Shown here piece by piece: positions 7,589 to 61,501 of a DNA stretch of 64,000 bases (position 1 is its first letter; the number at the start of each line of letters is the position of its first letter). The stretch lies in IMG/VR virus record IMGVR_UViG_3300033149_001571, positions 1 through 64,000 of that record. One strand, written 5' to 3'. The DNA comes from a virus. The notes under the pieces were generated by a model that saw nothing but the letters and a program-made list of their open reading frames with translations, was not told where the DNA came from and made no database searches. The position numbers and the translations under genes were made by a program.

Positions 7589-9034
7589 TCAAGTGTCGGA
7601 CCATAGGTCACGCACCACGACGCAGTTGAACCCCTCGCGGCGCATCGCTCGGATTCTCTCCTTCGCGTGAGCGTGTAGCCACCGGTTACCCTTGTCCCCG
7701 ATATCGTAGACGATGAATCGATTCTTTCCGTCTGTACGTCGGGAGCCTCTCCCTACTTGCTGGAGAGTCTCGATTACCGATTTCCCTCCGGCCGCGTTGA
7801 TCACGGTGCGAAGCTCCGGGACGTTCACACCTTCCGCGAAGACCTTAGTAGAGATTATAAAATCGATCCGCGAGTCTTCGAGGCGAGCTAGAGCGGCGGC
7901 GCGTTGCTCCGTGTCTCGGTTCCCGTCCACCACTTCCACGTTGATACCTGCCGCGCGTGCTAGGTCTCGAAGCGTCCGCGCGTGCTCGATACGACGGACG
8001 AAGACCATACCCGGGCTCTCTCCGTCCGCGAGTGTCTTCCGCATCGCTTCCACCACGAGACGATTCCTAGGCTTAGAAGACACGATTAACTCTTCGTAGA
8101 CCTTCCGGTAATCTCCTTCGCTCTCTGGGCTCGCTCTCTGCTCTAGGGGGAGAATCCGTATCTCCGGCTCTGAGAGCATCCCGGCGTCTATCAACTGCCG
8201 CGCGGAGATCTCGTACTCGATAGGACCGATCGCCGCTACCGCCATAAGCGAGCGGCGGTCCCCTCGATCGAAGGGAGTACCGGAAAGACCTACGCGGTAG
8301 GTCGCTCGGGAAAACTCCCGGATGGTCTCGTAGAAGCTACGAGCCGGGGCCGTGTGGCACTCGTCTACGATCACCCCGTCGATTGAGCGGGCTAGGTCTG
8401 CGAAGCGCTGGGAGCCTCTCGCGCGGTGGAGTGTCTGTAGGGTGGAGCACGTGAGCCGCTCGCCTACCTCCCATCGTCCAGCGCCCACGAATCCCGCCGG
8501 CGGTTCGTCGGTCGCGAGCGTCTCCCACCGCTTCGCTACGTCGTCGGCTAGGTTCCCGCGGTGGACGCAGAATAGCCACCGCCCCGGGATCGCCTTCGCT
8601 ATCGCTACCGCTACTCTCCCCTTCCCTCCGCCGGTCGGGATCTTGATTACCCCTCGCCCGTACAGGCTCGCGTTCACGGTAGCCGCTACGATCGCGTCCA
8701 CCTGATACGGCCTCATGGTTAGGGGCTCCGCTCTGAGTCTCTCCGCGAGCGCCTCCGGGTCCGCTAGGGTCTTCGTCCTATGGTCGGAGATAGCCAGCCC
8801 CATGTTCTGAGACTGAGCCCCCTTAGCCACGAGAGGGATTAGACCTACCGGGAGCGTCCCTCTCTTGCGCGAGAATAGACGGATCCGGGTAGGGCCCCCG
8901 TAGTAGCCCATCCGCTCGCGTCGCTTCGCTTTCGTATCCTCGAAGCTCACGAATTCATCTAGCCACGAGAGCGCCTCTTCACTCCCCGTCACTCGTGCTT
9001 CGCTCCCGTTCTCGATTACGATTCTAAGATTCAT
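7589..9034 (-). CDS. Superfamily 2 DNA/RNA helicase (UvsW/DEAD-like)
   Basis: A 481-residue SF2 helicase. After an N-terminal extension of ~105 residues, the motor reads QxxR-like RPYQVDAI, motif I PTGGGKG (133-139), motif II DECH (224-227), motif III SGTP, then the second lobe with GMVFVRRIEHA, STKVFAEGVNVPEL and motif VI QQVGRGSRR. In motif I the residue after the Lys is Gly instead of the usual Ser/Thr. Related phage enzymes remodel recombination or stalled-fork intermediates. ATG has AGAGGG about 6 bases upstream and overlaps the methyltransferase stop by 11 bases. It is the last gene before the 7489-7523 terminator. Confidence 0.92.
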   Translation of the reverse strand: MNLRIVIENGSEARVTGSEEALSWLDEFVSFEDTKAKRRERMGYYGGPTRIRLFSRKRGTLPVGLIPLVAKGAQSQNMGLAISDHRTKTLADPEALAERLRAEPLTMRPYQVDAIVAATVNASLYGRGVIKIPTGGGKGRVAVAIAKAIPGRWLFCVHRGNLADDVAKRWETLATDEPPAGFVGAGRWEVGERLTCSTLQTLHRARGSQRFADLARSIDGVIVDECHTAPARSFYETIREFSRATYRVGLSGTPFDRGDRRSLMAVAAIGPIEYEISARQLIDAGMLSEPEIRILPLEQRASPESEGDYRKVYEELIVSSKPRNRLVVEAMRKTLADGESPGMVFVRRIEHARTLRDLARAAGINVEVVDGNRDTEQRAAALARLEDSRIDFIISTKVFAEGVNVPELRTVINAAGGKSVIETLQQVGRGSRRTDGKNRFIVYDIGDKGNRWLHAHAKERIRAMRREGFNCVVVRDLWSDT

Positions 9035-9554
9035 CGCGACCCTCTACTTGATTCCCCCACACGTCCCACCCGGGACGCTCGCGCCGCGCGAAGATCTCCG
9101 CGCGTGGACCGGGGGAGACCCCCTCGATTAGCGCGTAGCTCTCCTCCGGCTTCCTAGAGTGTTCGGTCCGCTTCACGAGCCCGCCGCCCACGAGACTAGA
9201 CCACGAGCGGGATTCCGAAGGGAGCCGGCCGCGGATACCGAAGAGCATAATTTCATGCTGTCCGCGGAGGTACTGGCCTAGACCGATTGACGTCTTCGCC
9301 CATACCGCGTTCGTCACGTACCGGAAGCCTAGGGCCTTCATGACGAAGAGCCCATCTTCTAGGAAATTATTCGTGACCCATAGCCATAGGTGGCACCCTT
9401 CCGCGTGGGGCTGGAAGAGCGGAGAGCGGTAGATCGTGTCCACGATCTGAGGGGTCTTCATGATCGGGTAGTGACGGTCCGCGCCGCGCTTGTACTTACC
9501 GCCCCCGCGCTCGTACCAAGGGGGGTCCGCTAAGATGCACCGGTACCCGCTCAC
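9024..9554 (-). CDS. MT-A70 family adenine methyltransferase (first copy)
   Basis: 176 residues with the hallmark DPPW motif at 10-13 (CILADPPWYERGGG), the WLWVTNNFL strand and the terminal GWDVWGNQ block typical of the phage branch of MT-A70 N6-adenine methyltransferases. It would methylate adenine in DNA, probably to protect the genome from host restriction. It starts with GTG in a GTGA overlap with the sigma-like gene. A second, different MT-A70 gene lies at 60893-61501, so the phage encodes two. The target sequence cannot be read from the protein. Confidence 0.9.
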   Translation of the reverse strand: MSGYRCILADPPWYERGGGKYKRGADRHYPIMKTPQIVDTIYRSPLFQPHAEGCHLWLWVTNNFLEDGLFVMKALGFRYVTNAVWAKTSIGLGQYLRGQHEIMLFGIRGRLPSESRSWSSLVGGGLVKRTEHSRKPEESYALIEGVSPGPRAEIFARRERPGWDVWGNQVEGRDES

Positions 9555-10114
9555 GCCGGGGCCCCGATCTGCTCACGGATAACGGCGCGAGCCTTGCGGC
9601 ACCTGTAGCGCCAGTGATCGTAGCCGCGGCGCTCCGGGTCGGAGTCCGCAAGCTCCCGCGGTCCGCCTCGAAGGATCCACGAGAGGTTCTCGGAGAACGC
9701 CTCCGCCACCACGGCGTCCACGTCTCCTAGAGCTTCGAGCGCTCTCGCGAGCCTAGCGAGCTTAGAGCGCGTCTCTAGCTGGTGTCCGGGGTCGAAGTAC
9801 CGCGGAGCCTCTCGGCTCGCTACGGCCGTCTCTGCCGCCTCTCCGCGTACGCTCTTCGCTTGCTCCGTGTAGGCGTACTCGCGATTCTTCGGAGTGTGTA
9901 CGGGCTGGATTGTCTGGTAGCTCCAATTGAGTAGCCCGCGGCGGATCGCCCCCTTCACATAGGCGCGGCGCGTCCCCTTCTCGGGGTCATAGTGTGGGAT
10001 CGCTTCGAGAGCGATCCGCCACGCTTCCTGGTTCACGTCTTCCGGGATGAGGCTAGGCCACGCGCGAGCGTGGTCCCGGGCTTCGTAGGCTACGATCTGA
10101 GAGATATCGTCCAT
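9551..10114 (-). CDS. Sigma-70-like RNA polymerase sigma factor
   Basis: 187 residues. Residues ~22-72 resemble sigma-70 region 2 running into region 3: IPEDVNQEAWRIALEAIPHYDP, then AYVKGAIRRGLLNWSYQ, then a VHTPKN segment like the VR+P+ motif that starts region 3. The C-terminal half (LARALEALGDVDAVVAEAF ... RCRKARAVIREQIG) sits where a region 4-like helix-turn-helix would be, but the match is weak. ATG has AAGGGGG about 6 bases before it. If active, it would redirect host RNA polymerase to phage promoters such as the repeated T6/CGATT elements. The alternative is another helical DNA-binding protein. Confidence 0.65.
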   Translation of the reverse strand: MDDISQIVAYEARDHARAWPSLIPEDVNQEAWRIALEAIPHYDPEKGTRRAYVKGAIRRGLLNWSYQTIQPVHTPKNREYAYTEQAKSVRGEAAETAVASREAPRYFDPGHQLETRSKLARLARALEALGDVDAVVAEAFSENLSWILRGGPRELADSDPERRGYDHWRYRCRKARAVIREQIGAPA

Positions 10115-10982: not shown

Positions 10983-11078
10983 TTCGTGTGTTCGTTGGTT
11001 CGTGTGTTCGTTGGTTCGTGTGTTCGTTGGTTCGTGTGTTCGTTGGTTCGTGTGTTCGTTGGTTCGTGTGTTCGTTAG
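10983..11078. repeat. Six tandem 16-bp repeats between the VWA and DUF6744-like genes
   Basis: The unit TTCGTGTGTTCGTTGG (plus strand) is repeated six times without error except the last two bases of the final unit, which merge with the VWA stop codon. Each unit is itself two similar 8-mers (TTCGTGTG and TTCGTTGG). The array fills nearly all of the gap between the VWA stop (11075) and the ribosome site of the next gene. It may be a protein-binding array, an mRNA element, or simple slippage expansion. Length polymorphism between relatives would be expected. Confidence 0.9.
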
Positions 11079-12445
11079 CGGGGGATCTTGATCTCCTGCC
11101 CCCATGAGACCGGAGCCTTACAGTCCGGAGTGATCAGCCAAATCGTGGGGACGCTGGGAGCCTTGCTCGGAGCCGGGCCCCCTCCGTCCGTCGCCACGAT
11201 TACGAGATCCGGGCGCGTCTTACCCTTCGCGCTCTCGGCCTTCTCGAAGATGGGGACGAAGTTAGTACCGCCCCCGCCCGTGAGCATATCGCGGACCATG
11301 GCGAGCGCGGCGGAGCGTGCTCGGGGGAGCTTCACGGGCTCGCCTTGCACCTTCGTATCACACGCGAGCACGTACACCTCCGCGGCGGCTCCGGCGACGG
11401 CTAGAAGGTTCCCCACGGCGTGAGCGTGGTCCTCTGGGCTCATGCTGCCGGAGGTGTCCACGGCGTACCACACGCGGGCCTTCTCGCTCTCGTAGGTGGC
11501 GCGGATAGGGTTCCGCGGGTGCGAACCCATGCACGCTTGCCGGCGGTGGGGGCGGCGGTAGGTCTTACGACCGCCGGCGGCGCGGCGTACCACGGCTCCG
11601 GTCTTGCGTCGAAGGACGGCGGCCCACGAAGTGACGGGGGGAGCCAGACGGCCGTCCGCCCACACGGAGAGAGAGCCCGCGAGACCGCCGGCGGCCTTAT
11701 CGGCTGCCGATTGCTTCGCGATCTCCCGAGCGCAAGCGTCCCGGGCGGATTCCATCTCGCTGTCCGTCACCTCCGAGATCTTCGAGCCGTGAGCGTCTGT
11801 AGAGCCCGTATCCGGCTCGCCTTCCATCTTCTCGCCCCCTGCACCCTCGCCACACTCTCCCGAGCACGGTTGCGGCTCTCCGTCGCTCTTACGGGGCTCC
11901 CCGTTCTCGTCGGTGGCGGTAGGGTCTTCGGGGAGGAGATCGTAGATCTCCGCGGCGGACATTTTCGGATCGTGGGGGATCTTCACCTGCGAGCCGTCCG
12001 CCCCGGTGAACGTGGTCGCGGGGTACTTCGCGGAGCCCGTGTCCGGGAAGATCCCACACGAAGGAAGCTCCCACCCGGCGGCCACCAGCATCCCGTTGAT
12101 TCGGAGATCGCAAGCGATGTTCCAGCGGCGCGGGCAACGGTCGCCGCGGTGGTGTACGTCCTTAAGCATGATGTGGAGACACTCGTGGGCGAGCACTCCG
12201 GCGATCACCTCCACACCTTCGGCGCGAGCGAACTTGATCGCGCACCGCGGATCGAAGAAGAGGCGATTACCAGCGTTAACGCCGGCGGTGCCGCATGGGG
12301 CCCACACACATCCGGCCTTCACGAGAATCGGCGCGATGTAGGCTCCGCGGACGCGGAAGATTATACGAGCCTCGCTCATGATCTCACGGGCCTCTGCGAG
12401 GAGATCGGGAGCGAAGGTAGAAGGGGCGGTAGCGGGGGCGGTCAT
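11075..12445 (-). CDS. Metallopeptidase-like and VWA domain protein (DUF2201 type)
   Basis: 456 residues. The N-terminal domain has a zinc-peptidase-like HECLH (87-91) in VIAGVLAHECLHIML, followed by HHRGDRC and WNIACDLRIN, as in the putative metallopeptidase domain of DUF2201 proteins. An acidic linker (~180-240) leads to a C-terminal von Willebrand A domain with the metal-ion site DTSGSMS (~331-337) and a later GGGGTNF (third MIDAS-type segment). Such proteins pair with MoxR-type AAA+ ATPases as chaperone or metal-insertion systems. The partner gene is immediately upstream. It has its own promoter/leader copy. Whether the peptidase site is active is unknown. Confidence 0.88.
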   Translation of the reverse strand: MTAPATAPSTFAPDLLAEAREIMSEARIIFRVRGAYIAPILVKAGCVWAPCGTAGVNAGNRLFFDPRCAIKFARAEGVEVIAGVLAHECLHIMLKDVHHRGDRCPRRWNIACDLRINGMLVAAGWELPSCGIFPDTGSAKYPATTFTGADGSQVKIPHDPKMSAAEIYDLLPEDPTATDENGEPRKSDGEPQPCSGECGEGAGGEKMEGEPDTGSTDAHGSKISEVTDSEMESARDACAREIAKQSAADKAAGGLAGSLSVWADGRLAPPVTSWAAVLRRKTGAVVRRAAGGRKTYRRPHRRQACMGSHPRNPIRATYESEKARVWYAVDTSGSMSPEDHAHAVGNLLAVAGAAAEVYVLACDTKVQGEPVKLPRARSAALAMVRDMLTGGGGTNFVPIFEKAESAKGKTRPDLVIVATDGGGPAPSKAPSVPTIWLITPDCKAPVSWGQEIKIPR

Positions 12446-12462
12446 CGTTCGGTCTTCCTTGG

Positions 12463-12533
12463 GTCGGGCGGGAGTAGTGGCGGCCCGACTCTGGGAGATT
12501 AGATCAATCGTGGCGCGAGTACAACTAAAAAAC
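12463..12533 (-). promoter_or_regulatory. Promoter and leader hairpin of the VWA gene (conserved copy B)
   Basis: Minus strand order: T6 run (12527-12532), AGTTGTACTCG, a CGATTG box about 16 bases after the run, then a leader hairpin GTCGGGC-N13-GCCCGAC (12463-12489) and an AAGGAAGACC ribosome site before ATG 12445. Hairpin arms, the CGCCAC start of the loop and the ribosome-site region match the copies before the MoxR-like and DUF6011-like genes. Promoter activity is inferred; the hairpin is directly visible. Confidence 0.65.
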
Positions 12534-12566
12534 GGGGAGCGATGCGCGCCACACGCACCGCCCCCC
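12527..12566 (-). terminator. Rho-independent terminator after the MoxR-like gene
   Basis: Minus-strand 13-bp stem (12554-12566 with 12534-12546, two G-T wobbles), 7-base loop TGTGGCG, then GTTTTTTAG. It lies just after the MoxR-like stop codon (12574) and directly before promoter copy B, insulating the VWA gene from read-through. The heptaloop is the same as in the terminator at 7489-7523. Confidence 0.85.
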
Positions 12567-12573
12567 GGACCGA

Positions 12574-13833
12574 CTACTTAGATTTATTCGCTTTAGCCTT
12601 CGCCTTCGCCTTCTTCTCCGCCATGAGCACGGAGAAGAGCTTCTCCACGACGGGAGCGGCTTCCGTGATCTTATCGGGGCCGAACCCCAGCCCGTCCTTC
12701 GCGACGCTTCGAGACATCTCCCGGGCGTACTCGCGGACGAAATCCGCTCCGCCGTAGGGGCTCTCGATCACCCGGTCCGCGAGAGTCCACCACGCACGGG
12801 CGAGATCCTCCCGATCGTCTCCCGTGTAGCTGGCGAGGTATGTCACCGTCGCCCCGAGCACCGCGTGGGTCTTGTCGAATCGCTCCGTGGGCTCGTAGCT
12901 CTCGGGGTCCATGAGAACGCCGCGGGGGGCGGGAAGATCCTGATCTTGCCAGAAGGAAGCGAAGCGGGCGGCGAGACCCTCCGGGAGAGCGCAGTAAGCT
13001 ACGAACTCCATTTGACGGGGGGAGAGTCCGTGAATGATCCCGCCGGCGAGAGCGTGGATAAGATTCGTCCACGAGCGGACGGACGGCCAGCGGTAATCGT
13101 CGCCGTCGCTCATGGCGTGCGCGTCCGCCTCGAAGCGGTCTAGGTACTCTCCGACGATGGTAACCGCGGCGGAGTACGCCTCCGGCCACGCGGCGAGTAC
13201 CCGCGCCTCGATCTCCGCCACGTCTTCGCGAACGATCTCCCGCTGTAGGGAAGAGCGCCGCCAGTGTGTCTTCATGCTGCCCACGGAGGGCGGGACCCAG
13301 GGCACGTGTAGGAAGCGGTTCGCGGTAGGGGCCGCGAGCGTGTTCGCGTCCGCGGCACACTCGGGGGGGTTACCGATCGCGAAGATGCGGACGTGTCCGG
13401 CCACCTTCGTGTCACCGGCGAGACGCTCCGTAAGAAGCGTAAGCGCGGCGGCTTGCTTATGCTCTGCGACGGAGCCGAACTCATCTAGCCCGATGCAAGC
13501 GGACGCGGCGGCGTTCGCCTCTGCGAAGACCGGGCTGGGGAGCTTCGTCATAGCCGTGCGGGTCTTGTTAGGGACCCCGTAGCCGGCGATCTCTTCGGCG
13601 TCATGCTGAGCGAGGCTCATGGTAAGGGAGAGCCCGAAGAGCTTCGAGCCGATCTCCCGGGTGATACTGCTCTTCGCAGTACCGGGCTCTCCCCACACTG
13701 CGAAGGGGATACCCCACACGGTATCGGCACCGGGAGCGGTGTACGCCGGGGTGGTAAGGAAGCTACGGAGAACTTCGAGAACCTCGTCAGAGGTGAGGGA
13801 GTGGGAGAAGCAGAGGGTAGCGGTGTCGGTCAT
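12574..13833 (-). CDS. MoxR-type AAA+ ATPase
   Basis: 419 residues. Walker A GEPGTAKSS (48-56), Walker B IGLDEFGS (D117/E118), sensor-like IFAIGNPPE and an ANRF arginine-finger-like stretch identify an AAA+ ATPase of the MoxR/RavA group. These ring ATPases work with VWA-domain partners to remodel proteins or insert metals, and the next gene downstream encodes such a partner. The C-terminus is Lys/Ala-rich (KKAKAKAKANKSK). ATG follows AAGGAAAGACC and the conserved leader hairpin. The gene is monocistronic by the visible signals: own promoter copy and own terminator. The phage role of this pair is not established to my knowledge. Confidence 0.9.
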   Translation of the reverse strand: MTDTATLCFSHSLTSDEVLEVLRSFLTTPAYTAPGADTVWGIPFAVWGEPGTAKSSITREIGSKLFGLSLTMSLAQHDAEEIAGYGVPNKTRTAMTKLPSPVFAEANAAASACIGLDEFGSVAEHKQAAALTLLTERLAGDTKVAGHVRIFAIGNPPECAADANTLAAPTANRFLHVPWVPPSVGSMKTHWRRSSLQREIVREDVAEIEARVLAAWPEAYSAAVTIVGEYLDRFEADAHAMSDGDDYRWPSVRSWTNLIHALAGGIIHGLSPRQMEFVAYCALPEGLAARFASFWQDQDLPAPRGVLMDPESYEPTERFDKTHAVLGATVTYLASYTGDDREDLARAWWTLADRVIESPYGGADFVREYAREMSRSVAKDGLGFGPDKITEAAPVVEKLFSVLMAEKKAKAKAKANKSK

Positions 13834-14063: not shown

Positions 14064-14312
14064 CTACTCGGAGCCTTCTTCTTCTTCTTCTTCGGCCGCT
14101 TCCACCTCTTCGGGCGCGTCGAAGAGCTTCGGACCCCCGAGCAGCGAGCGGTCTAGCCCGATCACCGCGGAGCCCTGCTCTCTCCGCTTACGCTGATAGG
14201 CGCGGTCGAAGGCTTCGCGTCCGTCCACGGTGACAGTCTTCCGGCTATCGGGGTCTCCCACCGGTCCGGCTTCGATTACCTTGATCTCTTCGGGCTTCTT
14301 CGTCTTCGCCAT
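14064..14312 (-). CDS. Small acidic-tailed hypothetical protein
   Basis: 82 residues, not recognised. The N-terminus is basic (MAKTKKPEE), the middle has a charged helix (FDRAYQRKRREQGSAV) and the C-terminus is a run of Glu (EAAEEEEEEGSE). It is the last gene of the late operon, 32 bases after the giant head protein gene, so a head-associated role is possible. No catalytic motif is visible. Confidence 0.65.
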   Translation of the reverse strand: MAKTKKPEEIKVIEAGPVGDPDSRKTVTVDGREAFDRAYQRKRREQGSAVIGLDRSLLGGPKLFDAPEEVEAAEEEEEEGSE

Positions 14313-14344: not shown

Positions 14345-17300
14345 TCATTCGTCTACCCGCTTCGGGCTAACCGTCACCCCTACCGTCTTATCCGGCTTCG
14401 CGCTACCGGGGAGAATCGTGTAGGGCGCGTCGTTCTCTAGAGACTTGATCGACGCGGCCACGGATCGCGGCTTCTCGGATATGTCTTCGACGTCTAGCAA
14501 GACGGCATCATAGCCGGAGCGTCTAGACACTCCCGTACCTAGGTGCGCCGCCCCTAGATTATCGAGAGTCGCGTAGCTCACCACGCGGCGATTCTCTCCC
14601 GCTAGGATATATTCGTTCTCTCCGTTTAGACCAATCGAGAACGGAGACGCGCGGCGGTCCGCGAGAATCTCCCCTACGTCCGCCTCTCGCGTGGTGATCA
14701 CGGATCGGGATCGGCCCTCTATGCTTACGCTACCGGAGAAAGCGTCCGCGGAGAACGGGCTATCAGACCACGAACACGCGGCGTCTTGTTTAATCACGAA
14801 CTTGCGAGCGGACTTGTTTTTAATCTCGTTCGCTAGGTCTCCGAAGTGAAGCCCGCGGTAGGCTCGTACCTTCGTCACGCCTTGCGCCTTGAGAACGGCT
14901 TGCGTGTGCCCATAGAACGCCGCCGCCACGTCTTCGAGGTTCCCTAGGTACTTACCGCTGTAGGAACTCTTAATCTCTCCAGTGCCGAAATCTACCTCGT
15001 AACTGCCAAATTTACGCTTACCGGTGAGTCTAACTCGCGCGCTTACGTTGGAGTCTTGCGATAGCCCTAACCGGTGCGCCATCCAGTGGAAGATATCCGC
15101 GGCCCCCCCGGTGCTGCTACCGGACCAACTGCTAGAGGCCTTCTCCATGATCTCGGAGTAGAAATCCGGGTAGGTCTTCATGAAGACCGTACGGCTCTCG
15201 GATGCGGCCTTCTTCCGAGCCGTGTCACTTAGCAGGCTCGCGCGGTCGAATCCTAGATCCGTGCTCGGGGACGCGAGCGGGGACTTAAGGTCTTCCATCG
15301 CCTTCGTGCTCTGCACGTAGCTTCGGAGCACCTTCTCCTTCTGCTCGTCTGGGATCTTGTCCCAGACCTTCGGAGAGAACGGAGCACGGCCGCCCTTAAG
15401 AATCTCCTCGATCTCTTTCCGCGCCGCGGCGGCTCGCGCCTTCCGTTCGGCGGCTTCCTTCTTCGCCTTCTTCGCCGCGGCGGCCTTCGCCTTCTTCTCT
15501 TCCTTGATCTTCTTTACGAACTCCGCGCGCCGGCTCTTAATGTTGTCGCGGCGTTTAATCAACTTGTCACGAAGAGCCGAACGCTCTACGAGATCCTCGG
15601 GACCTAGCAAGTCCACCACCTTCGTAATCTGAGCGTCCGTGATACTCGCGACCCGATCGATTCCCGCTACCACCGCCTCCGCGTCCACCCCTTTGTAGAC
15701 GTCTGCCGCCGCGGGGTTCTTCGCGGAGTCTAGGAAGTTATCTAGCTCCGTCACCGTGTCCCCGAAGGCCCCTCCCTTCGCGTCTCCGCCCCCGCGGTAG
15801 CGTAGCGCCCCCTTCATGTCCCCACGGATGATCTTCCCGTTCGCGAGCTTCCTGAGCTTGCTAGGGCCCGTCCAGTTAGCGAGCCACGCATCCACCACGA
15901 AGCCGTCCGCTACTTGCTTCGCTAGGTCTCCCTTAATCGCGCTCGCGTTGATCTCGGTGCCTTCTCGGAAGTCGTAGACGGCCCTCTTCGCGTTGTCGGA
16001 TAGCGTGACGTCTGCCGCGTCAATGTCCGCGATCCGGTATAGCTCTCGCGTCAGCACCTCGTTCGCCACGTGGTCCGCGCTCTGCCGCTCGAAGCCGGTT
16101 AGACCCATGTCCCCGTAATCCTTCTCCGGTATTCCGAGAGACTCCGGGGTGGTCTTCGCCTTCTTCGCGGCCTTCTCGATATCCTCTAGGCTCTTCTCCG
16201 GGATTACGGCCTTCGTCTTCTTCGCGGCCTTCTTCTTCGTAGCCTTCTTCGCGAGCTTCCCGGGGATGTTCGCGTACTTCGAGTCCCGGAGCTTCCGTAG
16301 GTACTCGCGGCGATTCAGAAGCGTCTTAAGAAGCTCTTCGCCTTCCTTCGCATCGATCGGACCCACCTTCTTCACGAGAGCCTTAATCGTGGCCTCGTCG
16401 ATATCGAGAACGCGATCGATTCCGTGAGCTATGGATTTGTCCGTGACGTACTTAGAGAAGACCGAAGACGCTTGCGGGGCTATCTTCGGATCTAGAAGCG
16501 TGTCTAGCTCTTTTACTTCGTCACCCCATACCCCGGGGATCAGATCGTTCTTCTTCCCTCCCTGCGCGCGGTAGCGGAGCGCCCCGCCCGTGTCTAGCCG
16601 GTACGCCTTCGAGCCCTTAACCAGGAGGTTATCGTACCCGAGACCCACGACGTCCCAATTGGCGAGCCATGCGTCTACCACGAACTCTTCCGCGATGCCT
16701 TCGAGCTTCCCCGATTTGAGCGCCGCCGCGTCTTCCCCTACCCCGTCGATTATCTTCGAGGCGATCGACGGCTTTCCCTTCCGGGTAGCTAGAACCACGT
16801 CCGGGATATCGACACCCGCGGCCCGGTATAGCTGAGCGGCTAGGACTTCGTTACGCGCTACGTCCTCCACGCTTGGAGTCTTCACGTACCACCGCTCGCC
16901 CGTGGTGCTCTCGTACATGCCCCCGTCATTACTGCCCCCCTGAGCCCCTACCTTCTTCCACTTCGCCGTATCGTCCACGTCTACGACGTCCGCGGGGATC
17001 TTCGTAGGCTCTTCCGGCTTCTTCTTCGCGGCCTTCTTCTTCGTGGCCTTCTTCTTCGTAGCCTTCTTCTTCGCTACGGCCTTCGCTACGTCTGCCGCGT
17101 CCGGGGCGATTGCGGTAGCTACCTTCTTCGCCTTAATCGCGCTCACGTCGTCGATGTACTTCGCGAGCGCTGGTACGCTCTTCGCTTGCTTCGTCTTCGC
17201 CGCGTGCTTCGTGAGCCAATCCGCTAGATCGTCTCTCGTGACCACGAGGGACTTCCCTACCTTCTTCGCGGGGAGCTTCCCGGCGTAGACCGCATTATTA

Positions 17301-20263
17301 AGCACGTAAGACTTAACCTCGAAGAGCTTCGCCGCCTCGCTCGTCTTTAGCTCCGCGGGGAAGAGCTTCGCGAGCGCCTTCGCCTCCGTCTCTTTCGCGG
17401 CCTTAGCCGCCCCCGCCTTCTTCGCGGACTCTTCGGCCTTCTGAGCCTTCGCGAGAAGCGTCTTAAACTTGTCACCCTTCGAGACCTTGCCGGTCTCCGT
17501 CTGTAGCCACTTCGCTAGATCTTGCGCTTCGATCTCGTAGGTGAACGCCCCCGCCTTCTTCGGGTTCGGGATCTTCGTAGCCTTTAGCTTCTCCGCGTAG
17601 ATCGCATTATTGATCGCGTACGGCTTCACCTCTAGCGCCTTCGCTAGATCGCTGGAGAGTATCTTCTCCGCGCCTACGATATCGGCGTAGCTCTCCGCCG
17701 CTACCGCTGCGTCTGCCGCCGCTGCGTCTACCACGGCGTCCGTCGCGTCTTCTAGCTTATCAAGCGCCGCCGCGGCTTCGTCCGCGCTCGTGGCGGCTAT
17801 CGGAGCTTCTAGCTTCGCCGCTTGCATCTTCGCTAGGTCTCCGCTCGCTATGGCGTCGTCTGCTAGCTTCTTCGCTCCGCCCCCTACCTTCTTCGCGGCG
17901 TCGTCTAGCTCTTCTAGAATCGCCTTCGCCTTCTTCCCTTGGAGAGAGAAGCCGGCCTCCGTGAGAACCTTCTGGATCTCCGCCTTCTTCGCGGTGAACC
18001 CCGCGGAGGTGCCGTCTTCGATCGCCTCCTCTACGAGCGCCTTCGCCTTCGCCTTCGCTTGCGCGGTCGTGAGCTTTGGAGGCTTCTTCCGGTAGATGAA
18101 ATCGGGGACGCCTGAGACGTTCGCCCCCTCTAGCTTCCACGTGAGGGAAGAGATCTCGCCGGACTCCCCGATTAGCTGGATCTTGACAGACGACGGATCG
18201 AATTCTTTAACCGCTACTTCGGCTCCGTTTAGCCTTACCAGATCTCCGGCCTCGATATCCGCTACGGGGGTCCGTGCGAAGCCCTTCGACGTTAGCACCT
18301 TGATCTCGTCGGTCTGTTTAATCGCTAGCTTTAGACTCTTCTTCGCCTCGTCTAGAGTCTTCCCCGAGAGCGTCCCGAGCGGCTCGTATTTCGTTACGAA
18401 ATTCTCTAGCTTCACTCTCGCCGCGTTGATCTTCGAGGGGTCTGCGAGGGTACTCGCGGACAGTACCTCCTTAATCGACGCGCCTACGTTGCTCTCTGCG
18501 ATCTCTGAGCTTTCGCGATAGAGCTTCTTCGCTAGATCCTTGTCTCGGAGCTTGATTACCGGCGGCTTCTTCCACACGCGAGGAGAGCTATATACGTAGA
18601 TATTCCCCGCCGGGCTCTTCGCGAGCTTCGCCACCTTGGGATCGGCTTCTAGGCTCTTCCCGCTGATTAGCCGTACTCGAATCTTTCCCGCCTTCGGGAA
18701 AGACTCTACCGTCATAGGGAAGCCGGACTCCGTGGCGATTATGTCTCCCGGCTTTAGGTCATCGAATTTCTTCGTGGTCTTCTTCGCGGACTTCCACTCC
18801 TGTTTAGCTTGCGCCTTCCAATCTTCGGGAGACACGCTACCCGGCTTCGGAGAGATCACCGCCTTGGAACTGTCTAGAGACTTCTTAACCTTCGCGGCTT
18901 CGAGCGCCGCCGCTTGCTCTTTAGAAGCCTTTCGCGCTAGTGCTTTCGCCTGGGCGATCTTCTTCGCCTTCTCCGCCGCCGCGGCCTCCGCCGCCTTCTT
19001 CTCCGCGAGTAGCTTCGCCTTCGCCGCTTCTTCTTTCGCCTTCGCTTCTTTGAGCTTCGCCGCCTTCGCGGCCTTCGCCTTCTCCGCGGCTTCCTTCGCC
19101 TTCTTCTGCGCTATCTTGTTCTGAATCGTGGCCTTCTTCGCGGCGAGAAGAGCCTGGATCCTATCGATCTCGTCCACCTCCGCCTTGATCGCGTTGATCC
19201 TGGCCATGAGCGCTTCCACCTGCTGGATTGCGGCCTGCTGCGCGGCGGGTGTCACGAGCGAAGCGGCCCCCTTCTTCGCGGCCTGTAGCTTCTTTCGATA
19301 GTCGATTAGGTTCGCGGAGAGCATCGCCTTACGGATCTCCGTAGGCCCCTCCGCACGCGCCGCGCTCGCCCCCGGTATGGTAATCGGAGCGTCTTCCGTC
19401 GGCGTCGCGGTGTCTACGATATACCCCTTGTCTCCGTCCTCGAATTCGTCTCCGTAGCTTGCTCGCCATCCCACCACGATCTCGCGGTCGTGGGGGCGGT
19501 TCGGCGGCGCTTGATAGCTCACCCCGAAGAAGGGATCGTAGAAGGGTTCTTTAACCGGCTTCGTCTGCCCGTGTAGCCCTACGGAGTCCCGGCCGGTCCG
19601 GGAGTCGAAGGTAGCCACGAGACGCTTAAGCATAGGCTCGTCGTCTGTGTCCTCCTCGATTAGCGCGTTTAGCTGTAAGCCGTTGTAGGCGGCGCTCGTC
19701 TCCGTACGGATGATTCGATCGACCATCCATTGACGATCACCCACCACGTCCTTAACCGCGGCCATCACTTTAGGCCGCGCCTTGATCCAAGATTCACCCG
19801 TTAGGATCGTCTTCGCTATCTCGTCTTCGATCTTCGTGACGGTGCCGGACCCGTACCTAGCGAAGCTCTGCGCGTACGTTCGTAGACGGATCTTCGATAG
19901 CTGGTTAGCTTGATTATCGATCCACCCGAGAGACTCGAATCGAAGCGGCCGGGCCACCCCTAGGTACTGGCGGTCTAGAGCGTGAAGCCACGTCGAAGCG
20001 TCCCGAGCGGATACCCTAGCGGTCTCCGCGAGACCTAGGGCTAGAAGGTCCGTCTGGCCCTTGGTTAGCTGAGAGACGCCGGCCTGTAGCTGCCGCATCA
20101 CTGCGAGGCGCTCCGCGTAGCCCCACGAGCCTAGACTCATTCCGGCTAGGTCCTTCTTCACCTGCCGGAGCGTGTCTAGAGCGAGCTTCGCCGCGCGCGT
20201 CTGGGACTGTAGCTGTACGGCGCGGATACTGTCCGCCTGAGCTTCGAGAAGATCACGAAGCAT
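14345..20263 (-). CDS. Giant MuF-type head protein with HTH, kinase-like and ART-like segments
   Basis: 1972 residues, far longer than ordinary MuF/SPP1 gp7 proteins (about 300-500). Residues ~150-270 match the head morphogenesis (MuF) domain: RTETSAAYNGLQ, TFDSRTGRDSVGLHGQ, PPNRPHDREIVVGWR. Residues ~340-460 are an Ala/Lys/Glu coiled coil. Two excisionase-like helix-turn-helix units follow (~864-921 and ~971-1018: LAKALEVKPYAINNAIYAEKL and AAKLFEVKSYVLNNAVYAGKL), then Lys/Ala repeats. Residues ~1100-1325 resemble a HipA/PI-kinase-like fold (GGSNDGGMYE, WYVKTP, catalytic-loop-like ANWDVVGLGYDN, LDTGG). A second, degenerate copy lies at ~1388-1575. The C-terminus (~1690-1900) looks like an ADP-ribosyltransferase: YRGL (~1801), CSWSDSPFS, ENE (~1882). 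It lies after the portal gene, so it is probably packaged and possibly injected. Confidence 0.85.
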   Translation of the reverse strand: MLRDLLEAQADSIRAVQLQSQTRAAKLALDTLRQVKKDLAGMSLGSWGYAERLAVMRQLQAGVSQLTKGQTDLLALGLAETARVSARDASTWLHALDRQYLGVARPLRFESLGWIDNQANQLSKIRLRTYAQSFARYGSGTVTKIEDEIAKTILTGESWIKARPKVMAAVKDVVGDRQWMVDRIIRTETSAAYNGLQLNALIEEDTDDEPMLKRLVATFDSRTGRDSVGLHGQTKPVKEPFYDPFFGVSYQAPPNRPHDREIVVGWRASYGDEFEDGDKGYIVDTATPTEDAPITIPGASAARAEGPTEIRKAMLSANLIDYRKKLQAAKKGAASLVTPAAQQAAIQQVEALMARINAIKAEVDEIDRIQALLAAKKATIQNKIAQKKAKEAAEKAKAAKAAKLKEAKAKEEAAKAKLLAEKKAAEAAAAEKAKKIAQAKALARKASKEQAAALEAAKVKKSLDSSKAVISPKPGSVSPEDWKAQAKQEWKSAKKTTKKFDDLKPGDIIATESGFPMTVESFPKAGKIRVRLISGKSLEADPKVAKLAKSPAGNIYVYSSPRVWKKPPVIKLRDKDLAKKLYRESSEIAESNVGASIKEVLSASTLADPSKINAARVKLENFVTKYEPLGTLSGKTLDEAKKSLKLAIKQTDEIKVLTSKGFARTPVADIEAGDLVRLNGAEVAVKEFDPSSVKIQLIGESGEISSLTWKLEGANVSGVPDFIYRKKPPKLTTAQAKAKAKALVEEAIEDGTSAGFTAKKAEIQKVLTEAGFSLQGKKAKAILEELDDAAKKVGGGAKKLADDAIASGDLAKMQAAKLEAPIAATSADEAAAALDKLEDATDAVVDAAAADAAVAAESYADIVGAEKILSSDLAKALEVKPYAINNAIYAEKLKATKIPNPKKAGAFTYEIEAQDLAKWLQTETGKVSKGDKFKTLLAKAQKAEESAKKAGAAKAAKETEAKALAKLFPAELKTSEAAKLFEVKSYVLNNAVYAGKLPAKKVGKSLVVTRDDLADWLTKHAAKTKQAKSVPALAKYIDDVSAIKAKKVATAIAPDAADVAKAVAKKKATKKKATKKKAAKKKPEEPTKIPADVVDVDDTAKWKKVGAQGGSNDGGMYESTTGERWYVKTPSVEDVARNEVLAAQLYRAAGVDIPDVVLATRKGKPSIASKIIDGVGEDAAALKSGKLEGIAEEFVVDAWLANWDVVGLGYDNLLVKGSKAYRLDTGGALRYRAQGGKKNDLIPGVWGDEVKELDTLLDPKIAPQASSVFSKYVTDKSIAHGIDRVLDIDEATIKALVKKVGPIDAKEGEELLKTLLNRREYLRKLRDSKYANIPGKLAKKATKKKAAKKTKAVIPEKSLEDIEKAAKKAKTTPESLGIPEKDYGDMGLTGFERQSADHVANEVLTRELYRIADIDAADVTLSDNAKRAVYDFREGTEINASAIKGDLAKQVADGFVVDAWLANWTGPSKLRKLANGKIIRGDMKGALRYRGGGDAKGGAFGDTVTELDNFLDSAKNPAAADVYKGVDAEAVVAGIDRVASITDAQITKVVDLLGPEDLVERSALRDKLIKRRDNIKSRRAEFVKKIKEEKKAKAAAAKKAKKEAAERKARAAAARKEIEEILKGGRAPFSPKVWDKIPDEQKEKVLRSYVQSTKAMEDLKSPLASPSTDLGFDRASLLSDTARKKAASESRTVFMKTYPDFYSEIMEKASSSWSGSSTGGAADIFHWMAHRLGLSQDSNVSARVRLTGKRKFGSYEVDFGTGEIKSSYSGKYLGNLEDVAAAFYGHTQAVLKAQGVTKVRAYRGLHFGDLANEIKNKSARKFVIKQDAACSWSDSPFSADAFSGSVSIEGRSRSVITTREADVGEILADRRASPFSIGLNGENEYILAGENRRVVSYATLDNLGAAHLGTGVSRRSGYDAVLLDVEDISEKPRSVAASIKSLENDAPYTILPGSAKPDKTVGVTVSPKRVDE

Positions 20264-20271
20264 CTAAGCGC

Positions 20272-22119
20272 CTACCCTTCCGCGTCTTCGTCTTCGTCCG
20301 CTTCTTCCGCGTCTTCGTTCTCTAGATCCTCGCGGTAGTCCGGGGGCTCTAGGTCTTCGTCTTCGTCTTCGTCGTCGAGACCCATCCCCCCTAGACCTTC
20401 GATCATCGCGCGCATACCTTCGGAGCGCTCTAGCGCCACCCGTCGCACCTCTTCGTCCCCATCATTCCCGAGCATCTGCGCTAGTTGCCGAATCGCGGTC
20501 TCTTCTGAGATCGCTTGCTTCTGAGCGCTCGCGACCGCCATAGCCTGAGCCATCTGAGCCACCTGAGCGGCCGTAGGCGTCCAGTACGGGGGCCACTCCA
20601 TATCTACGTATGTCTCGGGGGGTCCGGGTTCGTGAGCCTCGTACGACACCTCTACGGACGCGGGAGCGGCCGGGATCATCGGGTCATCTTTCGAGGTGTC
20701 CGCCTCCACCTCTCGGATTACTTTCCGCGGAGGGAGTAGGATACCGGGCCGGTCTTCTCCGCTCCCTACCTTCTCCATATTCGCGACCCCGTGATTCTTC
20801 GCGGCGGTAAGTAGGAGATACGATATCTCCCGGACCGCGCTCCCGAGTGTGACGCGGAGCCGGTTCGCCTTGCTCTCCATGGATCGCCATAGGATCTGGA
20901 GAGCTTCGCCGGACTGGTAAGCCTTCGCGGTGTCCGGGTGGATTACGACGCACTCTACGGTCTGGAGTACCTCGTGGATCATCTTATCGATCGCCTTAAG
21001 CCCGATCTCCACGCTCGTACCTTGCATCTCTAGATATTTCGCTTCGCCGTCCGGAGAGAGCGGGATTACGTGGCTCGATCCCTTCTGGATTAGGTTATTC
21101 CGGCGGCGGTTCTGCCGGTCTTCCTTGATCACGAGGGTCGGATCTGCGTTCGCTACCGCGGCCTTATAAACCTGAGACTGTAGCCGATCTAGCTTATCGA
21201 GAAGCGGCCACGCCCCCGAGCAATCGGGCTCACCGTCCGGGCTCTCCGTGCGTCTCGTGTTCTGGTACCAGACGACGGGACACGCTCCGAACTTATGGGG
21301 GACCACCTTCGCGACCGGGATCGCTTCGTCTGGTACGTCGTCACACGGGACGTCCCGGTAGTAGATAATCTCTTCGGGGGTCCATGCTCGGGTCTTATAA
21401 AAGAGCTTAGACACGAGCCGTCCGCGGTCTCGCGGTCCCGGTAGGCCGCCCCCTTCGTTCGCTCGCTCCCACACCTGCCGGACCACCTTCGTCTGTTCGA
21501 TCACGACGTTAGGGACCCACCCGGGAGACTCGGGGCACCACTCCGCCACCCACACGTTCGACGGTCGAAGCACCTCCGCCTCGAAGTGTCCGGCAACGAT
21601 CCCGAGCGCCACGAGCGAAGAGCCACACGCGCCCGCTACGTCTCGCGCTTGTGAGAGCACGTCCCACAGACTCGCCTCCCGGAACGCCGCTTCTAGGTAA
21701 TCCTGCGTCGCCGGTGAAGACCACGAGCGAAGAGCGGGCCTCCTCCCTTCCCCTAAGAGCATCTCCGTGAATCGGCTCGTAACCTGCCGCGCTAGAGGTA
21801 CCGGAGCGTCCGGCTTCCGGTAGGCGTGTGGCGTACTGTTCACGGGGACGAACCCCTGGGGCTTAAGGCGCTCCTGCATGTAGCCGACGCCCGGATCTCT
21901 CGGGAGCCCGTTCCAATCGCTCCCGTGGTGGTCGTGTTGGGAACCCTCGAAGAAGCCGTAGCACTGGGTTAAGGCTCTACACCGCGGGTCCGATTCTAGG
22001 TCTAGGACCGCCATAGCGGAGAGATAATCGCGGACGAATCGGATAGAGCCGCCCTCTTCGGACGCTTGCCCGGGGAGCGTCTGCAACACTCCGCCCTTCA
22101 TACTCGAATTCCCTTCCAT
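20272..22119 (-). CDS. Portal protein
   Basis: 615 residues, directly after the large terminase and before the MuF-type gene, the usual place of the portal. Features of the portal fold include the N-terminal YLSAMAVLDLESDPRCR region, VTSRFTEMLLGEGRRP, ASLWDVLSQARDVAGACGSSLVALG, a long helix (LLDKLDRLQSQVYKAAVANADPTLVIKED) and a strongly acidic C-terminal tail (DDEDEDEDLEPP ... EDEDAEG). It would form the dodecameric DNA channel and dock the terminase. ATG at 22119 has AGGGAGG only 2 bases upstream. A second ATG at 22101 has AGGG at better spacing, so the true start may be six codons later. Confidence 0.85.
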   Translation of the reverse strand: MEGNSSMKGGVLQTLPGQASEEGGSIRFVRDYLSAMAVLDLESDPRCRALTQCYGFFEGSQHDHHGSDWNGLPRDPGVGYMQERLKPQGFVPVNSTPHAYRKPDAPVPLARQVTSRFTEMLLGEGRRPALRSWSSPATQDYLEAAFREASLWDVLSQARDVAGACGSSLVALGIVAGHFEAEVLRPSNVWVAEWCPESPGWVPNVVIEQTKVVRQVWERANEGGGLPGPRDRGRLVSKLFYKTRAWTPEEIIYYRDVPCDDVPDEAIPVAKVVPHKFGACPVVWYQNTRRTESPDGEPDCSGAWPLLDKLDRLQSQVYKAAVANADPTLVIKEDRQNRRRNNLIQKGSSHVIPLSPDGEAKYLEMQGTSVEIGLKAIDKMIHEVLQTVECVVIHPDTAKAYQSGEALQILWRSMESKANRLRVTLGSAVREISYLLLTAAKNHGVANMEKVGSGEDRPGILLPPRKVIREVEADTSKDDPMIPAAPASVEVSYEAHEPGPPETYVDMEWPPYWTPTAAQVAQMAQAMAVASAQKQAISEETAIRQLAQMLGNDGDEEVRRVALERSEGMRAMIEGLGGMGLDDEDEDEDLEPPDYREDLENEDAEEADEDEDAEG

Positions 22120-22138: not shown

Positions 22139-23638
22139 CTACCGCGAGAGAGAATCGATATCGAAGAAAGCGGCGTCTTCCTTAGCGGTCCACGCCCCGT
22201 GCCCGTGCCCTGATTTACGGGCCGATTCACGAGCGATCCACGAAGCCACGAGCCGGTCTCCGGTGTGCTCCGTGGGGACGTAGGAGGTACACTCCCGGAC
22301 CCACGAAGCCACCTCCTCGTGCGGAACCATGTCCGGGTCGCAAGGGATGATCCATTTACCTTGCTCGAACTCCGTCCCGAGCGATTCAATTCCCCACTGG
22401 ATATCCCGCTTATTCGCTCCGGTGTAGTGCTTACGTAGCGGGAGCGCTGATAGCTCCCCCGCAAACTGAGCGAGGTAATCCTGTGCCGCGTTGCTCTCCA
22501 CCGTGATAATCGATCCGAATCGCCGGTAGACGTCTACAAGCTCTTCGAGGATACGCGGACCCGTCCAGCGGCCGGAGCGGATATCGAGAACGCGCCGCGA
22601 GCCGTCCGGGAGAATCGCGATCGTGAAGACGCACGCTAGATCTCCCTTCGCGCTCGAAGCTACGGATAGGTCTACCCCGGTAAAAGTCGGAGCGTCTTCC
22701 GGGTTCCACTCGGAGACGAATCCCGTCCCGCGGCCCCGCTCCAAGCACCTTTCAATCCACGCCTGTTTAATCCGCGCGTCATCATAGAGCGGGATTATAT
22801 TTCGGAGCATGTACGGGGCGAGTCTTCCTAGCTCGCTCTCTCGCCGCTTGAGAGCGTCCACCGTCCATAGTTCCGGGATCAGCGGGGCTTCCTTCCCGGT
22901 CTTCGGGTCGCGGACGAAGGCGCTATATAGGCGCTTCTCGTAGCCTTCGATCCGCGTTAGCCGGTGGAGTACGTCTTCCCTATGCCACACGTGTCCCACT
23001 GCCCACACTCTCCCGCCGCGCCGCGGGAGACGGGAGAGCACCTCGCCGGAGACCCACTCGAACATCTTCTCCCGCGAGTGTTCGGTGAAGGTGTTCTCCA
23101 TGTTGCAAATATCATCGATCACCACGAGATCTAGGCGAGAGCCTAGAATCTTCCCGTAGAGCCCGAACATCTGGATCGTAGGATCCGGGACGTTATCCGC
23201 CCTCTCTACGATGATCCCGCGCTCGCCCCATAGCCGCTGTCCGCTCGTAGACGGACGGAGGTTAGGGAACACGAGACGAAGCCACCGATTCCGCTCGATA
23301 TCCGCCTTAATCGCAGAGAGGAATTTCGTAGGGACTCCGCTCTTCGAGACGGAGATTACCCCGATTCGGATGTTTGGATTTCGGCCTATCTCGTAAAGAA
23401 GACGCCACCTCGTGATCTGGGAGCTTTTACCGTGACCCACCGGGGCGAAGAGCACGATTCGATCGTGATCGTCTAGCGCCTTCTGCCAGTCCCGGTGGAC
23501 GTCTCCCATCCGAATCGGTAGGTCCCCCTCTTGCCGCCCAATCGTCTCGATAAAAGCAGCGGAGTCTTCGCGAGCGCGGAGGATCTTCGCCCGTAGCGCT
23601 AGTCGTAAGCGCTCGGAGTCTTCTTCTTCGGTGCTCAC
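22139..23638 (-). CDS. terL: Terminase large subunit
   Basis: 499 residues. The ATPase half has Walker A APVGHGKSS (65-73), Walker B LVVIDD (D175/D176) and an arginine-rich SGEVLSRLPRRGG segment. The RNase H-like nuclease half begins near FTGVDLSVASSAKGD and continues with TVESNAAQD and a later Asp-bearing strand near TGDRLVASW. It cuts and pumps DNA into the prohead through the portal encoded next. Start is GTG in a GTGA overlap with the holin-like gene. Unusually, it lies downstream of tail and lysis genes, near the end of the late operon. Confidence 0.95.
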   Translation of the reverse strand: MSTEEEDSERLRLALRAKILRAREDSAAFIETIGRQEGDLPIRMGDVHRDWQKALDDHDRIVLFAPVGHGKSSQITRWRLLYEIGRNPNIRIGVISVSKSGVPTKFLSAIKADIERNRWLRLVFPNLRPSTSGQRLWGERGIIVERADNVPDPTIQMFGLYGKILGSRLDLVVIDDICNMENTFTEHSREKMFEWVSGEVLSRLPRRGGRVWAVGHVWHREDVLHRLTRIEGYEKRLYSAFVRDPKTGKEAPLIPELWTVDALKRRESELGRLAPYMLRNIIPLYDDARIKQAWIERCLERGRGTGFVSEWNPEDAPTFTGVDLSVASSAKGDLACVFTIAILPDGSRRVLDIRSGRWTGPRILEELVDVYRRFGSIITVESNAAQDYLAQFAGELSALPLRKHYTGANKRDIQWGIESLGTEFEQGKWIIPCDPDMVPHEEVASWVRECTSYVPTEHTGDRLVASWIARESARKSGHGHGAWTAKEDAAFFDIDSLSR

Positions 23639-60892: not shown

Positions 60893-61501
60893 TCACCACG
60901 TCCCGGGAATCGCCGTCTGCCGCGGAGCGTACGGAGTGTCCGGGCCTATCTCATTCCCCCACGACGTCCACCCGTGGCGCTTCACCCTCGCGAACATATC
61001 GAGACGGGGCCGGTCGTCGCCTACGAGACGCTCTAGACGGTCGTAAAAGAGATCCGGTTTCTGCGAGTGTTTACCTACGGGCGCTCTAAGATACTGCGAT
61101 TCTTTTAGAGAATGAATCGGGAAAGGCCGCCCCGTCTTTACGGTGGTAGCCACTAGAACCAATTCGGCCATCGGCTTAACGAAAGTCGGCTGTACGCCCT
61201 TCCCCTCGATAATCCCTCCGTCGCTCCGGCGGGTCTTTAGCCATATCCACGCCACCCCGCGGTAGGTAAGGCCCCACGCTCTGATTATGTCGATCGCATA
61301 ATCGAGACGCGGACACGTAGCCCATAGGAAGAGCGCGGAGCGATCTGACATAACAGAGCGCACGGGGAGCGCCGCTAGTTCTTCCTGGGTCATGACCCCG
61401 TAGTGATTCCTCGCGCTGTTAGTGTGGCCCGGCTTCGCGCTGTACCACCACGGGGGATCCGCTACTACGACGTCGAAGGGTCCGGGCGGGAGAGGGTTCA
61501 C
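60893..61501 (-). CDS. MT-A70 family adenine methyltransferase (second copy)
   Basis: About 202 residues. The DPPW motif (VVVADPPWWYSAK, ~14) plus MTQEELAALPV, LFLWATCPRLDYAIDIIRAWGLTYRGVAWIWLKT and the terminal HGWTSWGNE block identify an MT-A70 N6-adenine methyltransferase. It differs clearly from the 9024-9554 copy, so it is not a recent duplicate. GTG at 61501 makes a GTGA overlap with the gene before. A longer open frame to 61570 falls within that gene. It is in the first part of the long operon, away from the other copy. Confidence 0.9.
   Translation of the reverse strand: MNPLPPGPFDVVVADPPWWYSAKPGHTNSARNHYGVMTQEELAALPVRSVMSDRSALFLWATCPRLDYAIDIIRAWGLTYRGVAWIWLKTRRSDGGIIEGKGVQPTFVKPMAELVLVATTVKTGRPFPIHSLKESQYLRAPVGKHSQKPDLFYDRLERLVGDDRPRLDMFARVKRHGWTSWGNEIGPDTPYAPRQTAIPGTW

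What the first reader, a model, noticed from the sequence alone, without database searches (positions are those of the whole stretch)
14345..20263. Giant head protein combining MuF, excisionase-like HTH pairs, kinase-like repeats and an ART-like C-terminus
A MuF-type protein is normally 300-500 residues; this one is 1972. It appears to carry two DNA-binding HTH units, a HipA/PI-kinase-like domain with an intact ANWD...DN loop, a degenerate second copy, and an R-S-ExE-like ADP-ribosyltransferase end. MuF proteins can carry effector domains delivered with the DNA. Here several effector types are stacked in one polypeptide.
Basis: partly seen in the sequence, partly recalled or inferred. Interest (0 to 1): 0.85.

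Follow-up and report, generated by a model that had tools for sequence, protein, structure and literature searches.

The report
Phage head protein bearing kinase effector
A virus of bacteria carries a giant head protein that combines a packaging part, two DNA-binding units, a working-looking protein kinase, a dead kinase copy and a probable ADP-ribosylating end, most likely injected with the DNA to modify the host; the kinase belongs to an uncatalogued family found in hundreds of other phage sequences.

Summary
The 1972-codon ORF at 14345-20263 (-) is real and lies directly after terL and portal. (1) A MuF domain at the N-terminus (weak by itself, solid through relatives). (2) Two duplicated HTH_17/excisionase-like units. 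(3) A kinase domain at 1100-1328, AlphaFold2 pLDDT 96.9, whose nearest solved fold is CtkA, with HipA further down the list; its catalytic residues are invariant in 67 sequences. (4) A second, degenerate copy at 1394-1582 that has lost the Gly-loop, Lys, Asp and Asn. (5) A C-terminus with R1803, S1831 and E1882xE1884 in ADP-ribosyltransferase order, supported by weak homology only; its fold could not be modelled. "MuF plus stacked effectors" is not new: it is a polyvalent protein/MuF fusion. What seems new is the kinase. It passes no Pfam, PHROG or NCBIfam cut-off, yet 441 viral-contig stretches encode relatives, usually in 700-3300 aa proteins that also carry MuF and/or ART. MuF-kinase-ART proteins without the HTHs exist (L067, L105). 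A relative in Yersinia phage fHe-Yen8-01 is annotated as particle-associated. Best reading: a DNA-co-delivered kinase + ART host-modification protein. Substrates, packaging and ART activity remain untested.

The parts
14345..20263 (-). giant MuF protein, 1972 aa, ATG start, 212 kDa
19394..20263 (-). MuF-type head-morphogenesis domain, residues 1-290 (Pfam core 144-257)
   Evidence: PF04233 E=4.3e-4; PHROG head morphogenesis hits; 55-61% identical relatives in the same place after portal
18824..19366 (-). Ala/Lys-rich linker, residues 300-480 (30% A, 19% K, net charge +20)
18128..18778 (-). middle region, residues 496-712, two short GD[IL]-containing segments that look like small beta barrels; unassigned
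   Evidence: sequence only; no significant family (best YajC E=0.087)
17489..17698 (-). HTH unit 1, residues 856-925, diverged copy of unit 2
   Evidence: 37% identity to unit 2, E=2e-10
17198..17386 (-). HTH unit 2 (HTH_17 / excisionase-like), residues 960-1022
   Evidence: PF12728 E=1.7e-10, above curated cut-off; phrog_1840 excisionase E=1.5e-4
16976..17200 (-). strongly basic linker, residues 1022-1096 (28% K, AKKKATKKKA repeats)
16280..16966 (-). HipA/CtkA-type kinase domain, residues 1100-1328, catalytic set intact (G1110/G1114 loop, K1128, E1139, N1202, D1204, D1211, N1212, D1224)
   Evidence: family alignments; AlphaFold2 pLDDT 96.9, pTM 0.93; Foldseek best hit CtkA E=2.4e-8
15518..16084 (-). 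degenerate second kinase copy (pseudokinase), residues 1394-1582
   Evidence: 39% identity to copy 1, E=1e-29; Gly-loop and Lys deleted, NWD->NWT, DN->SK
14549..14881 (-). probable ADP-ribosyltransferase core, residues 1795-1905: R1803, S1831 (SWS), E1882-N-E1884
   Evidence: fold not confirmed
20272..22119 (-). portal protein, directly upstream
   Evidence: phrog_64 E=2.6e-20
22139..23638 (-). terminase large subunit
   Evidence: phrog_38 E=1.2e-48
14064..14312 (-). 82-aa acidic ORF directly downstream, no known family; the only candidate for an immunity partner

Best explanation
A MuF-anchored polyvalent effector of a contractile-tailed phage. Proposed steps: (1) made late, right after terminase and portal, the MuF domain docks the protein at the portal/inside the head in very few copies [inferred from MuF homology and gene order]; (2) the HTH pair and Lys/Ala-rich linkers hold the chain on the packaged DNA and let it be threaded out with it [inferred]; (3) in the new host the CtkA/HipA-type kinase phosphorylates, and the C-terminal ART ADP-ribosylates, host (or phage) proteins to turn the cell to phage production [enzyme classes shown or probable; substrates unknown]; (4) the catalytically dead second kinase copy acts as a substrate-binding or regulatory partner of the first [inferred]. 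Shown here: the ORF, the order of domains, the kinase fold with an intact catalytic set, the dead copy, and the recurrent linkage of this kinase family with MuF and ART in other phages.
For: terL-portal-MuF order. Kinase fold pLDDT 96.9, CtkA best PDB match E=2.4e-8 and HipA 8.5e-4. Catalytic positions identical in 67/67 sequences, E1139 66/67. Of 33 kinase-bearing phage proteins scanned, 21 also match Phage_Mu_F, 11 ADPrib_exo_Tox and 8 ART, with NUDIX, WGR and Zeta_toxin in a few. Of 24 from bacterial genomes, 12 match ADPrib_exo_Tox, 6 Phage_Mu_F and 3 Phage_min_cap2. Structure matches among viral proteins include ones named portal, ADP-ribosyltransferase and head morphogenesis. L067 and L105 are MuF-kinase-ART without the HTHs; L094 is a 55%-identical MuF with an ART end and no kinase. 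Yersinia phage fHe-Yen8-01 gp129 (kinase + ART) is annotated 'phage particle associated protein'. Gordonia phages carry the kinase protein directly after portal.
Against: No virion or activity data for this protein. The MuF match is below Pfam's cut-off in this protein. The ART end passes no family cut-off, is invisible to an ART HMM and could not be folded. The particle-associated note in fHe-Yen8-01 is a record annotation; no paper was found. All matched phages are distant: terL at most about 25% identical in the rows listed. Patterns used to collect kinases contained part of the active site (DAWL[AG]NW; R[VLI]D[ATP]GG), so conservation at those positions is partly by selection; K1128, the Gly-loop, D1211 and N1212 lie outside the patterns.
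Confidence: 0.65

Rival explanations
1. MuF polymorphic toxin aimed at competitors: the C-terminus is the toxin, the middle is a delivery/spacer region, and a small neighbouring gene gives immunity.
For: C-termini on this MuF clade vary between close relatives: ART in L094, HExxH-type metallopeptidase in L097/L101, short MuF with no extension in L100/L102. An 82-aa ORF lies right downstream. MuF toxins with ART ends are known (PMC5576092).
Against: No recognisable immunity gene; the intact, conserved kinase in the middle is more than a spacer. MuF toxin domains are reported only from temperate phages (PMC5576092); lysogeny of this phage was not examined.
Confidence: 0.15
2. Enzymes act inside the producing cell or in assembly (for example modifying capsid, portal or late host proteins) and are never injected; the MuF part only recruits them to the prohead.
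For: Late-operon position after portal; in several relatives the kinase is in tandem stand-alone ORFs next to the large protein (L073, L074, L084, L088, L089).
Against: One homologue is annotated as particle-associated, and T4 Alt sets the precedent of a head ART injected with DNA (PMC9503650).
Confidence: 0.12
3. Mainly structural filler: the extra domains are decayed passengers of recombination and the protein is just a large head protein.
For: The second kinase copy is dead; the ART end is so diverged that no HMM reaches it.
Against: The first kinase and the R-S-ExE residues are intact, and the 5.9-kb frame is open.
Confidence: 0.08

Closest known systems
Polyvalent proteins of phages and conjugative elements (Iyer et al. 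2017, PMC5512222)
   Same: One large virion-linked polypeptide with unrelated enzymatic and DNA-binding domains encoded with packaging genes; ART and MuF parts.
   Different: The kinase described there is an S/T/Y kinase with the C-terminal subdomain lost, mostly in Verrucomicrobia-Chlamydia and Bacteroidetes phages; here it is a HipA/CtkA-type kinase. HipA, CtkA and excisionase-type HTH are not mentioned in that paper's text. Sequence comparison with their supplementary alignment was not possible.
MuF-ART fusions / MuF polymorphic toxins (PMC9503650, PMC5576092; EFV toxin of Enterococcus)
   Same: MuF N-terminus downstream of portal with an ART C-terminus.
   Different: A kinase, a pseudokinase and two HTHs lie between them; no immunity gene recognised.
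Head-packaged Alt of phage T4
   Same: Head protein carrying an ART, proposed to be injected with DNA.
   Different: No MuF, kinase or HTH; ART only distantly alike (from general knowledge; not compared here).
CtkA (Helicobacter pylori) and HipA kinases
   Same: Fold: Foldseek E=2.4e-8, TM 0.65-0.67 to CtkA; TM 0.50 to HipA; HipA_C sub-threshold match at the N-lobe.
   Different: 13-15% identity; own family with motif DAWLANWDVVGL.YDN...R(V/L)D.GG(A/S)L; fused to virion/ART proteins.
Yersinia phage fHe-Yen8-01 gp129 and Pseudomonas phages Jeremy/Dolphis
   Same: Same kinase family (46-48% identical for Yen8-01 and Jeremy) and a C-terminal ADPrib_exo_Tox ART in those two.
   Different: MuF was not matched there; ART of the YTGSGY type; no HTH_17 match and one kinase copy only.

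Membership tests
MuF superfamily | Sequence homology to PF04233 / SPP1 gp7 | tested here: met
   E=4.3e-4 but below the curated cut-off; relatives L109 and L105 match PF04233 at about 2e-4, and the kinase-bearing L027 at 1.3e-20; the window MuF profile finds 40+ loci
MuF superfamily | Gene immediately downstream of portal | tested here: met
   portal ends at 20272, MuF ORF begins at 20263 (- strand)
MuF superfamily | Present in the capsid | not testable with these tools
   needs virion proteomics
Polyvalent protein | Several unrelated enzymatic/DNA-binding domains in one polypeptide encoded with virion genes | tested here: met
Polyvalent protein | Delivered into the host with the DNA | not testable with these tools
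   only a particle-associated annotation of a relative
MuF polymorphic toxin | Variable C-terminal toxin domain on a conserved N-terminus | tested here: met
   ART, metallopeptidase-like or no extension on related MuFs
MuF polymorphic toxin | Cognate immunity gene | tested here: inconclusive
   82-aa ORF of unknown family downstream
MuF polymorphic toxin | Carried by a temperate phage | not tested
   integrase/lysogeny genes not searched
HipA/CtkA-like kinase superfamily | Kinase fold closest to CtkA/HipA | tested here: met
HipA/CtkA-like kinase superfamily | ATP-binding Lys, catalytic Asp, metal-binding Asn/Asp | tested here: met
   copy 1, 67/67 sequences
Pfam HipA_C (PF07804) family proper | Score above the curated cut-off | tested here: not met
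   17.4-18 vs 30.5 bits
ADP-ribosyltransferase superfamily, R-S-E class | R, S-x-S, ExE in order | tested here: met
   R1803, S1831-W-S1833, E1882-N-E1884, in register with ART profile
ADP-ribosyltransferase superfamily, R-S-E class | Significant homology to a known ART | tested here: inconclusive
   window vs L094 ART BLASTP E=3e-4, 0 of 1000 shuffles; 2-sequence HMM 16.3 bits vs shuffle maximum 10.2; A11-A12 hhalign 78%, 1.8e-5 but A11 includes two relatives; window sequence alone vs ART profile P=0.008, probability 4.8%; no Pfam hit
ADP-ribosyltransferase superfamily, R-S-E class | ART fold | tested here: inconclusive
   AlphaFold2 pLDDT 40.9 with 5 sequences
HTH_17 / excisionase-like HTH | Family match above cut-off | tested here: met
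   unit 2: 41.4 vs 27 bits; unit 1 by similarity to unit 2 only

The most novel reading that the evidence does not exclude
A previously uncatalogued, widespread family of HipA/CtkA-type kinases has become a standard partner of head-delivered ADP-ribosyltransferases, so that phages inject a two-enzyme (phosphorylation + ADP-ribosylation) host-modifying polypeptide; in this phage it is further equipped with a DNA-tethering HTH pair and a pseudokinase regulator.
Probability: 0.4. Interest if true: 0.8.

Novelty: new variant of a known kind. Interest (0 to 1): 0.6.

Why it matters
Injected host-modifying enzymes of phages are known from very few cases (T4 Alt and, made after entry, the T7 kinase). 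A kinase family that repeatedly sits in one chain with a head (MuF) domain and an ART, occurs in 441 viral-contig stretches and in culturable Pseudomonas putida and Gordonia phages, gives a tractable way to ask what a phage changes in the first moments of infection. It also fills an annotation gap: the domain passes no Pfam, PHROG or NCBIfam cut-off.

Tried and rejected
ART fold by AlphaFold2 with 5 aligned sequences: pLDDT 40.9, discarded. Searches for close relatives of the ART end in viral contigs, phages and PDB: none. ART HMM (A10) on the C-terminus: no better than shuffles; the claim rests on L094/L131 similarity instead. First ART alignments (A3, A5, A6) misaligned the R motif and were not used. 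A regular-expression motif test missed the window's own sequence, so it was dropped. Kinase profile against PDB sequences: nothing significant; only the fold search placed it. Chimera or misassembly: considered; GC is even, MuF-kinase-ART recurs in L067, and an independent contig (L006) is identical over the first 192 residues but stops there, so the full length is supported by one contig only. PHROG 'HNH endonuclease' label for 11075-12445 rejected in favour of the Pfam metallopeptidase/VWA match.

Full report
OBSERVATION. The ORF at 14345-20263 on the minus strand is open for 1972 codons from an ATG and encodes 212 kDa. It starts 9 bases after the portal gene, which follows terL; the major head protein is at 50346-51755 and a baseplate wedge at 31333-32439, so this is a contractile-tailed phage. 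The record is a 68,356-base viral contig. Its terminase is at most about 25% identical to those of the cultured phages listed, so the phage is far from anything characterised.

DOMAINS. Residues 1-290 are a MuF domain: PF04233 E=4.3e-4, below the curated cut-off, but several PHROG head-morphogenesis families match, and a profile of this region found 43 loci, some 55-61% identical over its whole length and, where checked, in the terL-portal-MuF position. Two HTH units follow: 972-1020 is HTH_17 above cut-off and 856-925 is its duplicate. They are separated by Lys/Ala-rich linkers, most with strong positive charge.

KINASE. Residues 1100-1328 match proteins of cultured phages at 33-48% identity. 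AlphaFold2 on an alignment of 67 sequences gave pLDDT 96.9 and pTM 0.93. The best solved fold is CtkA (E=2.4e-8, TM 0.65-0.67), with HipA also in the list (8.5e-4; TM 0.50). The Gly-rich loop, K1128, E1139, N1202, D1204, D1211-N1212 and D1224 are invariant or nearly so (the search patterns bias N1202 and D1224, not the others). No PHROG or NCBIfam model covers it in this protein and Pfam's HipA_C stays below its cut-off. The second copy (1394-1582) is 39% identical to the first, no closer to it than to other phages' copies, and lacks the ATP-binding loop, the Lys, the catalytic Asp and the metal-binding Asn: a pseudokinase. Of the other kinase ORFs collected, only one (L166) has two copies.

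C-TERMINUS. The nearest relative, L094, is a MuF protein of the same clade with an ART end (its own Pfam score PF03496 E=6.7e-4, just under cut-off). The window protein and L094 align over the S..ExE half (BLASTP E=3e-4; score 73 against a maximum of 68 in 1000 shuffles), and an HMM of L094+L131 scores the window C-terminus at 16.3 bits against at most 10.2 for 2000 shuffles. Profile-profile comparison puts R, S and ExE in register with bona fide phage ARTs (probability 78%, E=1.8e-5). Against this, the window sequence alone is not found by an ART HMM, and the structure model failed. I hold the ART reading at about 0.8.

RECURRENCE. The kinase is the informative part. 441 viral-contig stretches encode relatives and 56 were found in bacterial genomes. 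They sit mostly in proteins of 700-3300 aa. Among 33 scanned from viral contigs 21 also match MuF, 11 ADPrib_exo_Tox and 8 ART; among 24 from bacterial genomes 12 match ADPrib_exo_Tox, 6 Phage_Mu_F and 3 Phage_min_cap2. L067 and L105 are MuF-kinase-ART; L071 is MuF-NUDIX-kinase-ART plus an HExxH-like end. In Gordonia phages the kinase protein follows portal directly. In Yersinia phage fHe-Yen8-01 the kinase-ART protein is annotated as particle-associated. Predicted viral structures with this fold include proteins named portal, head morphogenesis and ADP-ribosyltransferase. The linkage is therefore seen by sequence, in two collections, and by structure.

MECHANISM. Best reading: MuF anchors the chain at the portal; HTHs and basic linkers associate it with packaged DNA; it enters with DNA; kinase and ART modify host proteins. 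The two enzymatic statements rest on fold and motif; docking, injection, tethering, pseudokinase regulation and substrates are inference.

COMPARISON. The general idea is published: polyvalent proteins (PMC5512222), MuF-ART fusions packaged in heads, ARTs enriched in myoviruses (PMC9503650), MuF polymorphic toxins (PMC5576092). Searches for a published link between HipA or CtkA kinases and phage head or ART proteins found none in the library held; subscription papers are not covered. Hence 'new variant of a known kind'.

Noticed in passing
L014, L027, L028, L034, L039, L049, L057, L060, L068, L120, L133 (last ~250 codons of the large ORF): A second recurrent C-terminal domain on MuF and MuF-kinase proteins: RRG...GMSP..D..TGGASYFFTR...NETIFK..LSLFDDL...WPDGR, invariant R, S, D, E; no PDB relative and only a hint of ART. 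Possibly a new effector family.
   Followed up: partly
L073, L074, L084, L088, L089: Two neighbouring ORFs each carry the kinase domain, a 500-760 aa one ending in it and a larger one with further C-terminal parts.
   Followed up: no
L071:4124-10240: 2038-aa protein with MuF, NUDIX, kinase, ART and an HExxH-like end: a larger stack of enzymes than the window's.
   Followed up: partly
window 9551-10114 (-): Phage-encoded protein with a Sigma-70 region 2 match above cut-off (E=1.7e-5): a possible phage sigma factor.
   Followed up: no
window 11075-13833 (-): AAA ATPase next to a DUF2201 metallopeptidase/VWA protein, a MoxR-VWA-like pair; PHROGs labels the second one HNH endonuclease.
   Followed up: no
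window 9024-9554 and 60893-61570 (-): Two DNA methyltransferase genes of the same PHROG (phrog_359) far apart in the window.
   Followed up: no
L096:7004-8395: A 58%-identical MuF relative is followed by what looks like an HTH_17-type segment before the contig ends, so MuF-HTH may recur (judged by eye).
   Followed up: no
L097, L101, L103: MuF proteins of this clade ending in HEFGH/HExxH metallopeptidase-like segments (judged by eye).
   Followed up: no
L150, L151, L163, L189: The kinase domain in Pseudomonas genomes (P. cerasi, P. sp. KUIN-1, P. tremae, P. syringae) in 555-755 aa proteins; whether they lie in prophages was not checked.
   Followed up: no
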